Of a stretch of DNA of 64,000 nucleotides, positions 43,505 to 44,710 are shown piece by piece. The first letter of the stretch is position 1, and each line of letters opens with the position of its first letter. This stretch comes from Xanthomarina sp. F1114 (GTDB lineage: Bacteria > Bacteroidota > Bacteroidia > Flavobacteriales > Flavobacteriaceae): contig NZ_JAPMLL010000010.1 of NCBI RefSeq assembly GCF_026410255.1, positions 62,001 through 126,000 of the forward strand, written 5' to 3'. A model generated the notes under the pieces. The model had not been told where the DNA came from and did not search any database. It saw only the letters and a list, made by a program, of their open reading frames with translations. The position numbers were made by a program, and so were the translations under genes.

Positions 43505-43527
43505 GACACTCAAGTTTTAATAAAATT

Positions 43528-43567
43528 ATAAAAGTCCAAACTCAATTTATTAAGTTTGGACTTTTAT
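43528..43567 (+). terminator. Terminator of the acyl-CoA dehydrogenase gene
   Basis: ATAAAAGTCCAAACT (43528-43542) and AGTTTGGACTTTTAT (43553-43567) form a perfect 15-bp stem with a 10-base loop and T/A-rich base, 23 bases after the stop. Confidence 0.85.
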
Positions 43568-43605
43568 AGTTTTAATCTCTTTTAAATTGTCAGAAAGACG
43601 ATGCT

Positions 43606-43737
43606 TCAACTCGCCGATTTTAATGGAATAATATAACCTTCTGCTTGGTGATATTTTTCAGATTTAATAATGTTTACTAACCAGTCTAAATGGTTTTCAG
43701 ACTTTCTTCTAAAACTGTAATTTAAGGTTGCTTCCAT
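43606..43737 (-). CDS. Small ORF, 43 aa, hypothetical
   Basis: ATG at 43737 to TGA at 43606. The product starts MEATLNYSFRRKSENHLDWL and contains VNIIKSEKYHQAEGYIIPLK; it is soluble, mixed in charge and has a plausible helix-strand layout. Codon use looks like the neighbouring genes. No family is recognised. It lies alone between the acyl-CoA dehydrogenase terminator and sigZ, and is shorter than most gene-finder limits. Confidence 0.4.
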   Translation of the reverse strand: MEATLNYSFRRKSENHLDWLVNIIKSEKYHQAEGYIIPLKSAS

Positions 43738-43925: not shown

Positions 43926-44471
43926 CTAAAGGGTAGAACACACCTTGCAGTCTTCTTTTTCTTTTATCTCTCCCACCAATACACCTTTGCTATTCATTTT
44001 TAAATCGCAGCAATCCATATATCCTTGAGTAATCAGTTTTCTAGCTCTTTGTATTTGCGACTTAATCGTGGGAAGTGGCAGCTTTAATTGTTCTGCTACT
44101 TGAGCTTGTTTTAATCCCTTAATATCTGCCAAAAATAAAGGGTCTCGATATTTTTTAGGTAACTGCTTAATAATTCCATGTAAGCAATCGTGTTCCGTAT
44201 GTTCGTTTTTATTCTCTATAAAAACAATATCGGTCTCAGATAGTGTAGTCGATATTTTATTTTTTCTAAAATAATCTAAGACCGTATACCTAGCCACCGA
44301 AAACGTCCAGGCTTTTAACTTCTCGGTATCGTTTAAAGAATCTTTTTTGGTATGTATTTTAATGAAAGTGTCTTGGAGTAAGTCTTCTGCAATAACTGGA
44401 TTTTTCACCTTACTTAAAATAAAGTGTTTGATATCGTCTGCATATAAATTCCAAATCGTTTGGGTAGTCAT
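43926..44471 (-). CDS. sigZ: ECF-type sigma factor, SigZ-like, with cysteine-rich tail
   Basis: 181 residues. Sigma region 2 includes IAEDLLQDTFIKIHTKK and KLKAWTFSVARYTVLDYFRK; region 4 is IIKQLPKKYRDPLFLADIKGLKQ split over two helices, with the DNA-reading helix in LPLPTIKSQIQRARKL. The C-terminal extension carries Cys154-Cys155 and Cys175-x-x-Cys178 (YMDCCDLKMNS and EDCKVCSTL), as I recall for SigZ-type factors. That pattern could bind a metal or sense redox state. No anti-sigma gene is adjacent. Upstream on the same strand are a Cys-rich peptide gene and a terminator-like hairpin. Confidence 0.85.
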   Translation of the reverse strand: MTTQTIWNLYADDIKHFILSKVKNPVIAEDLLQDTFIKIHTKKDSLNDTEKLKAWTFSVARYTVLDYFRKNKISTTLSETDIVFIENKNEHTEHDCLHGIIKQLPKKYRDPLFLADIKGLKQAQVAEQLKLPLPTIKSQIQRARKLITQGYMDCCDLKMNSKGVLVGEIKEKEDCKVCSTL

Positions 44472-44474
44472 TCT

Positions 44475-44533
44475 TCAAAAAATTAAAAAGCAGTAATTTC
44501 TTTAGCATAAAATTACTAAAAAAATTACCGCTT
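44475..44533 (-). terminator. Terminator/attenuator between the Cys-rich peptide gene and sigZ
   Basis: On the minus strand AAGCGGTAATTT (44533-44522) pairs with AAATTACTGCTT (44499-44488) with one wobble. The loop itself contains the pairing TTTAG/CTAAA, so the whole folds as one extended hairpin. It runs into TTTTTAATTTTTTG and ends just before the sigZ ATG. It could end the peptide transcript or attenuate sigZ. Confidence 0.7.
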
Positions 44534-44552
44534 CTTTATTATTTAGCATTAC

Positions 44553-44654
44553 TTAACAATTGCAATTAGCACAAGTACAATTTTCGCAAGTACAGTTTTT
44601 ACAATTTCCATCTTGGCAACCTGAGCAGGTGCAAGTACATTCTTTATTATTCAT
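44553..44654 (-). CDS. Cysteine-rich microprotein, 33 aa, metallothionein-like
   Basis: ATG at 44654, TAA at 44553. Eleven of 33 residues are Cys, at 6, 8, 10, 13, 18, 21, 23, 26, 28, 31 and 33, in CxC and CxxC spacing (start MNNKECTCTCSGCQDG, end CTCANCNC). There are no aromatic or large hydrophobic residues and no signal peptide. This is what a small metal-binding metallothionein-like peptide looks like, although it matches no named bacterial metallothionein that I can recognise. It lies 81 bases upstream of sigZ on the same strand, separated by a terminator-like hairpin. Confidence 0.7.
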   Translation of the reverse strand: MNNKECTCTCSGCQDGNCKNCTCENCTCANCNC

Positions 44655-44710
44655 AATATATTGTTTTTAAGTTCGTATAATAGACGTGGAAACTTGGAAA
44701 AAGATGCATT

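What the first reader, a model, noticed from the sequence alone, without database searches (positions are those of the whole stretch)
43926..44654. 33-residue, 11-cysteine microprotein upstream of a cysteine-tailed sigma factor
Seen: an ORF too short for most gene finders (44553-44654) with one third Cys in CxC/CxxC spacing, followed on the same strand by a SigZ-like factor whose tail has Cys154-Cys155 and Cys175/Cys178. No anti-sigma gene is present. Inference: a metal- or thiol-responsive module in which a metallothionein-like peptide and a metal-sensing sigma factor work together.
Basis: partly seen in the sequence, partly recalled or inferred. Interest (0 to 1): 0.75.

Follow-up and report, generated by a model that had tools for sequence, protein, structure and literature searches.

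The report
Sigma factor driving a cysteine-rich microprotein
A tiny unannotated protein that is one-third cysteine, probably a metal sponge, appears to be made from a dedicated genetic switch whose sigma-factor partner sits right beside it, and the pair is kept together across many marine bacteria.

Summary
The 33-aa, 11-Cys ORF (44553-44654, minus) lies directly before a SigZ-like ECF sigma gene (43926-44471, minus). It is a conserved gene: 56 of 56 flavobacterial sigZ loci carry it in the same place, its Cys codons drift between TGT and TGC, and pN/pS is 0.21. Of 397 family genomes, 52 have this sigZ and 51 of those have the peptide adjacent; the exception has sigZ interrupted by stops and no peptide found.

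New here: an ECF-type promoter, TGCATC-N17-GTC, precedes 53 of 57 peptide genes; the home genome has one exact copy of its longer form. A widened form precedes sigZ, other Cys-rich microproteins, ArsM and ArsI/CadI genes at divergent SigZ loci (26 sites in 36 loci, reversed control 0). A sister SigZ clade carries a different, about 14-Cys microprotein in the same position.

Best reading: SigZ-like factors sense thiophilic metal(loid)s through their own cysteines and switch on detoxification; here the effector is a metallothionein-like buffer that closes the loop. Metal binding, metal identity and sensing are inferred. My searches showed no paper on this.

The parts
44681..44708 (-). ECF-type promoter TGCATCTTT-N14-GTCTA (TGCATC-N17-GTC), inferred to be read by the SigZ-like factor itself
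   Evidence: Only exact match in the genome; with relaxed spacing still the only match, though the reversed control pattern then matched twice. TGCATC-N17-GTC before 53 of 57 orthologous genes, reversed control 0 of 57. 46 exact sites in 44 of 397 family genomes, reversed control 4.
44553..44654 (-). 33-aa, 11-Cys microprotein gene, metallothionein-like by sequence
   Evidence: no meaningful Pfam, NCBIfam or PDB match.
44487..44534 (-). Stable hairpin followed by a T-rich tail between the microprotein and the sigma gene; terminator- or attenuator-like
   Evidence: 87 nt around it fold at -27.4 kcal/mol, z -6.5; terminator-like scan hit. The spacer folds better than mononucleotide shuffles in 45 of 47 loci, but a T-rich tail was scored in only 8 of 47.
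43926..44471 (-). SigZ-like ECF sigma factor, 181 aa, with Cys96, Cys154-Cys155 and Cys175-x2-Cys178
   Evidence: Pfam region 2 and region 4; best NCBIfam models are SigZ but below curated cut-offs; Cys96, 154, 155 invariant and 175, 178 nearly so in 57 aligned sequences.

Best explanation
The locus is a self-contained homeostasis module. A SigZ-like ECF sigma factor without an anti-sigma gene carries its own thiols (Cys96 near the start of region 4, Cys154-155 at the end of region 4, Cys175-x2-Cys178 in the tail). When a thiophilic metal or metalloid binds these (most likely of the As(III)/Sb(III)/Cd(II) kind, next Cu(I) or Zn(II)), the factor becomes active and transcribes one operon from TGCATC-N17-GTCTA: first the microprotein, then, past a hairpin that probably lowers read-through, sigZ itself. 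The microprotein sequesters the ion in metal-thiolate clusters, which lowers the signal and resets the sigma factor. Supported by sequence: the gene, its conservation, the pairing, the promoter and the like motif at metal(loid) loci. Inferred: that SigZ reads the promoter, that it senses the ion itself, that the peptide binds it, and the feedback.
For: Peptide beside sigZ in 56 of 56 loci and in 51 of 52 sigZ genomes among 397, same strand, gap at most 252 bp; only 15 of the other 345 genomes have a peptide-like hit. Purifying selection, pN/pS 0.21, Cys fixed. Promoter in 53 of 57; one exact site in the genome. Where the peptide lies downstream of sigZ (L203), sigZ and the peptide each have their own copy of the motif. 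26 motif sites in 36 non-type-1 SigZ loci, control 0: before microproteins (6), sigZ (6), ArsI/CadI (5), a thioredoxin-like ORF (3), Cys-tailed proteins that look secreted (2), ArsM (1), others (2), no ORF (1). ArsM 3 of 3 and ACR3 3 of 3 proteins tested pass NCBIfam cut-offs, ArsI/CadI 5 of 8. Sister SigZ clade with a 36-45-aa, about 14-Cys microprotein in the same place, 22 of 66 loci (tree).
Against: No metal-binding, expression or mutant data. I saw no metal gene beside the window's module; the metal link comes from divergent relatives. The widened motif was shaped after looking at some of the loci it was then counted on, so those counts are not blind. 41 of 66 weaker SigZ-family loci have no Cys-rich peptide and 41 no strict site. 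15 genomes hold peptide-like ORFs with no strong sigZ and no site in the stretches fetched, so the peptide does not always need SigZ. With two mismatches the home genome has no more sites (39) than the reversed control (41). The hairpin's T-rich tail is seen in a minority.
Confidence: 0.62

Rival explanations
1. The microprotein is mainly a regulator of SigZ: a small anti-sigma or metal relay that binds the sigma factor through its cysteines and releases it when metal or oxidant loads the peptide.
For: Near-strict pairing; no anti-sigma gene nearby; conserved thiols on both partners.
Against: At other SigZ loci the motif stands before ArsM or ArsI/CadI enzymes, which are effectors; peptide-like ORFs occur without strong sigZ in 15 genomes; the peptide's architecture changes between clades, which fits a sponge better than a binding partner. 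No complex was modelled.
Confidence: 0.15
2. The module answers oxidative or disulfide stress: the peptide is a thiol redox buffer and the tail cysteines are a disulfide switch; metal is incidental.
For: CxC/CxxC motifs serve redox chemistry too; some motif sites precede a thioredoxin-like ORF and a flavoprotein, the latter weakly like a bacillithiol-disulfide reductase model, below its cut-off.
Against: The enzymes after motif sites that pass a curated cut-off are ArsM and ArsI/CadI.
Confidence: 0.13
3. The peptide is a precursor of a ribosomally made, modified natural product (RiPP).
For: Short, Cys-rich, beside a regulator.
Against: No gene that looks like a modification enzyme or exporter next to it in the window (by eye); no leader: the peptide is Cys motif nearly end to end.
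Confidence: 0.03
4. The short ORF is not translated and the conserved region acts as RNA.
For: Short 5' gene before a regulator, followed by a hairpin.
Against: Synonymous change far exceeds amino-acid change; no Rfam match there at gathering scores.
Confidence: 0.02

Closest known systems
SigZ sigma factors (NCBIfam TIGR02959, NF007215)
   Same: Best-scoring family over nearly the whole length; many of the SigZ-family proteins fetched share a CC motif after region 4 and a Cys-containing tail.
   Different: Scores fall below both curated cut-offs (152.8 against 168.65; 165 against 212 bits). The three Paenibacillus relatives show no microprotein and no such promoter.
CorE and CorE2 of Myxococcus xanthus (ECF44/ECF238), metal-dependent sigma factors
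   Same: No anti-sigma; conserved cysteines between the sigma domains and in the C-terminus, as described in passages of PMC8999054.
   Different: The CXC linker motif is absent (single Cys96); no direct homology test against CorE was run.
Metallothioneins
   Same: Tiny, one-third Cys in CxC/CxxC spacing; the window peptide has no His and no aromatic residue.
   Different: Matches no metallothionein model in Pfam or NCBIfam and no PDB sequence; apparently controlled by a dedicated sigma factor.
ArsM, ArsI/CadI and ACR3 arsenic or heavy-metal genes at other SigZ loci
   Same: A like promoter motif (ArsM, ArsI/CadI) or the same neighbourhood (ACR3).
   Different: Enzymes or pumps, not a peptide sponge; I saw none beside the window's module.

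Membership tests
ECF sigma factor | Region 2 and region 4 present, little else | tested here: met
   PF04542 and PF08281 above gathering scores; AlphaFold model mean pLDDT 84.7, pTM 0.48.
SigZ (TIGR02959 / NF007215) | Score above the curated equivalog cut-off | tested here: not met
   152.8 of 168.65 bits and 165 of 212 bits; best-scoring family all the same, so 'SigZ-like'.
[quoted passage not shown]
   One invariant Cys (Cys96) there, no CXC.
CorE-like (ECF44/ECF238) | Cys-rich C-terminus required for metal response | tested here: inconclusive
   Four conserved Cys (154, 155, 175, 178); response not testable.
Metallothionein (functional class) | Very small protein, about 30% Cys in CxC/CxxC motifs | tested here: met
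   11 of 33 residues; nine Cys columns in 57 of 57 genes, the last two in 56 of 57.
Metallothionein (functional class) | Binds d10 metals or As(III) in thiolate clusters | not testable with these tools
   Needs mass spectrometry or titration.
Known metallothionein sequence families | Match to a curated model or solved metallothionein | tested here: not met
   Pfam gave one chance hit (M20_dimer, 1 of 30 members, E 0.21), NCBIfam none, PDB none.

The most novel reading that the evidence does not exclude
SigZ-like factors of Bacteroidota are direct intracellular sensors of thiophilic metal(loid)s that read a common promoter of the form TGCRTC-N16-18-GTCT, and they have several times taken on different Cys-rich microproteins (about 33, 37, 26-27 and 43-59 aa forms) as dedicated effectors. 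The window's case is the leanest: one sigma factor with what looks like a single promoter in the genome, driving one metal-sponge peptide and itself.
Probability: 0.45. Interest if true: 0.85.

Novelty: new variant of a known kind. Interest (0 to 1): 0.7.

Why it matters
I found no stated function for SigZ in the papers seen; this gives SigZ-like factors a promoter motif, candidate targets and a testable signal. It also shows a set of microproteins whose type-1 form no model in Pfam or NCBIfam catches. A sigma factor that seems to control one tiny peptide and itself would be an unusually small closed regulatory loop, useful as a model and as a metal-responsive genetic part.

Tried and rejected
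Chance ORF: rejected. Non-coding reading: rejected on codon evidence. A larger type-1 regulon: with two mismatches allowed the own genome gave 39 sites against 41 for the reversed control, so nothing beyond the one perfect site stands out; other genes with weaker sites are not excluded. A conserved T-tailed terminator: only partly upheld (that script accepted only unbulged hairpins and found none in 7 of 47 loci, so it missed stems). Known metallothionein families: no match. Phylum-wide spread of the type-1 peptide: 5 of 395 genomes, all in the home family. The Cys geometry of the sigma model could not be read, since only confidence and secondary structure are returned.

Rows dropped and choices: for the 57-gene set (window plus 56 loci), L010 (same place as L014) and L011 (a separate genome, also with peptide and promoter) were left out; L001, L009, L012 and L013 were missed by a fault in the script and are the window and, by position, repeats of L015, L016, L017. 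The cut between strong and weaker sigZ matches (5.5e-43 against 6.1e-35) was set after seeing the gap. All 66 weaker matches were fetched and counted. The tree holds 117 rows: 17 of the 56 flavobacterial loci plus L192-L196, L213 and L215 for type 1, three Paenibacillus loci, and the other loci that one search listed; the window's own protein (L217), L212 (a further type-1 locus) and L225 (same place as L184) were left out, L277 as short, while L214 and L253 are one place entered twice. Its labels come from regular expressions; two (L282, L202) were set by hand. One search read 30 of the 46 sites. One search scored at most 8 candidates per genome. The shuffles keep base counts only, 30 per locus.

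Full report
Observation. The sigma protein carries Pfam regions 2 and 4. Its best NCBIfam models are the two SigZ models, both below their curated cut-offs, so I call it SigZ-like. No NCBIfam model matches the peptide or its 29 aligned relatives, Pfam gives one chance hit for one member, and no PDB sequence matches. The window has exactly one ORF of 20-60 aa with at least 20% Cys; simulated windows have 0.11 on average, none with more than 6 Cys.

Conservation. A scan of genome contigs found 61 loci with a relative of the sigma protein. 56 are flavobacterial, and all 56 carry the Cys-rich ORF on the same strand directly upstream; the three Paenibacillus loci and two remote ones do not. Over 57 genes (window plus 56) the Cys positions are fixed (nine columns 57 of 57, two 56 of 57) while their codons vary between TGT and TGC; uncorrected pN/pS is 0.21 over 354 pairs. 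In 397 genomes of the family, 52 have a strong sigZ match (E of 5.5e-43 or better; the next is 6.1e-35) and 66 a peptide match; 51 have both, all adjacent, on one strand and at most 252 bp apart. In the remaining sigZ genome, G194, the match is interrupted by three stops, a promoter-like site remains, and no peptide was found. G007, in the same genus and nearly complete, lacks both. Fifteen genomes have a peptide-like ORF and no strong sigZ; in the fetched stretches the peptides are divergent, the neighbours differ, and no promoter site was found (in L169 and L178 the script did not relist the ORF, and the G332 match behind L178 contains a stop).

Promoter. Printing the upstream regions showed a fixed motif, TGCATC-N17-GTC, with a T-run after the first element. 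It is found within 200 bp of 53 of 57 peptide genes, reversed control 0 of 57; of the four misses three are one-base variants (L047, L052, L064) and one a two-base variant (L054) by eye. The spacing and the GTC element look like an ECF promoter (general knowledge). The home genome has one exact match to TGCATCTTT-N14-GTCTA; with relaxed spacing it is again the only match, but the reversed control then matches twice, so uniqueness alone is weak evidence. In 397 family genomes there are 46 exact sites in 44 genomes, against 4 for the reversed control. Of 30 such sites read, 22 lead into peptide plus sigma gene, 5 lie inside long ORFs, and 3 have no peptide, one of these being G194.

Hairpin. Between peptide and sigma gene the window has a strong hairpin, z -6.5, followed by a T-rich tail. 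The spacer folds better than mononucleotide shuffles (z of -2.3 or lower) in 45 of 47 loci; ten loci have spacers too short to test. A T-rich tail was scored in only 8 of 47. I infer that the peptide is made in excess of the sigma factor, at least here.

Relatives. A second set of SigZ-family genes, about 26-39% identical, came from the same 397 genomes. Of all 66 such matches, fetched have a Cys-rich microprotein beside the sigma gene; 22 of these are a different 36-45-aa peptide with about 14 Cys that starts 129-185 bp upstream of the sigma match. A phylum-wide search with the SigZ model found 32 of 198 genomes; of 30 loci read, 13 (the window's own among them) have a Cys-rich ORF next to sigZ that passes the filter, including forms that lie downstream. 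On the tree the type-1 sigma proteins form one group (support 99/96), beside the type-2 group (joint support 96/88; one type-2-like row, L235, has no peptide); other microprotein forms appear elsewhere, with at least three label changes forced by well-supported branches (midpoint root, no outside ECF included).

Targets. In 36 non-type-1 SigZ loci a widened motif gave 26 sites, control 0. They precede microproteins (6), sigZ itself (6), ArsI/CadI genes (5), a thioredoxin-like ORF (3), Cys-tailed proteins that look secreted (2), an ArsM gene (1), a flavoprotein (1), a small ORF (1), and in one case no ORF. The motif was widened after I had looked at some of these loci, so the count is not a blind test. 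In the 66-locus set, which shares ten loci with the 36, 25 loci have a site, control 1 site; with a looser motif 39 loci, control 2 sites. NCBIfam supports ArsM (3 of 3 proteins tested above cut-off; L188, L234, L236), ACR3 (3 of 3; L184, L201, L224) and ArsI/CadI (5 of 8 above cut-off; L224, L255, L282 just below). Sites precede the ArsM genes of L188, L234 and L236. ACR3 is a neighbour, not shown to have its own site. In L203 sigZ and the downstream peptide each have a copy of the motif, which argues that the peptide is a target and not just a passenger.

Mechanism. The parts fit a closed loop: metal(loid) activates SigZ through its own thiols, SigZ transcribes peptide and itself, the peptide removes the ion. 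Cys96, Cys154 and Cys155 are invariant and Cys175 and Cys178 at least 90% conserved over 57 sequences, three of them Paenibacillus. CorE and CorE2 are the known precedent for an ECF factor that senses metal with its own cysteines (passages of PMC8999054); [quoted passage not shown] I did not test whether the present factor belongs to any of these groups. The metal is not known: the arsenic and ArsI/CadI company of its relatives points to As(III), Sb(III) or Cd(II); Cu(I) and Zn(II) remain open.

Literature. Ten searches were run. SigZ with metallothionein: 0 papers; SigZ with ECF and arsenic: 0; SigZ with Flavobacteri-: 4, judged unrelated from titles (fish immunology and cyanotoxins); SigZ with arsen-: 4, two Bacillus genome papers and two unrelated, seen as listings only. 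SigZ with sigma factor and Bacillus subtilis: 11, listings only, of which I read the SigZ passages of one, on Acidithiobacillia, which give no function (PMC12194929). Subscription papers are largely outside this library, and the ECF reclassification and the CorE2 paper could not be read.

Verdict. A real, conserved microprotein gene without a curated model, behind a conserved ECF-type promoter; the metal-sponge function and the sensing are inference.

Noticed in passing
window 44671-44677 (minus), and type-1 and type-2 relatives: Past the GTCTA element a stretch with consensus TATGAAC (TACGAAC in the window) is also strongly conserved (T, G, A, A at 94, 94, 91, 98% over 53 genes); several type-2 genes have TGAAC at a similar place. 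Its role is unexplained: start region of the transcript or a binding site.
   Followed up: no
L191 (G315) 972 and 1361: Two SigZ-type promoter sites 389 bp apart on one strand; the second serves the peptide, what the first serves is not clear.
   Followed up: no
L209 and L216: SigZ-like gene next to a gene that looks like selenophosphate synthase (by eye); motif copies stand before sigZ and before a protein that looks secreted and has Cys near its C-terminus.
   Followed up: no
L185, L208, L222, L254, L269: One SigZ clade is tied to a thioredoxin-like ORF with an SCC motif; in L208 and L222 a SaoE-like permease (below NCBIfam cut-off) lies close by, and in L185 a look-alike. Three of the five loci have the promoter motif before that ORF.
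   Followed up: partly
L165-L179: Peptide-like Cys-rich ORFs without strong sigZ in 15 family genomes; several lie near an amidohydrolase-like gene (by eye), suggesting another, SigZ-free way of control.
   Followed up: partly
window 43606-43737 (minus): 43-aa ORF between sigZ and a palindromic terminator-like hairpin at 43527-43568; no function known, conservation not checked.
   Followed up: no
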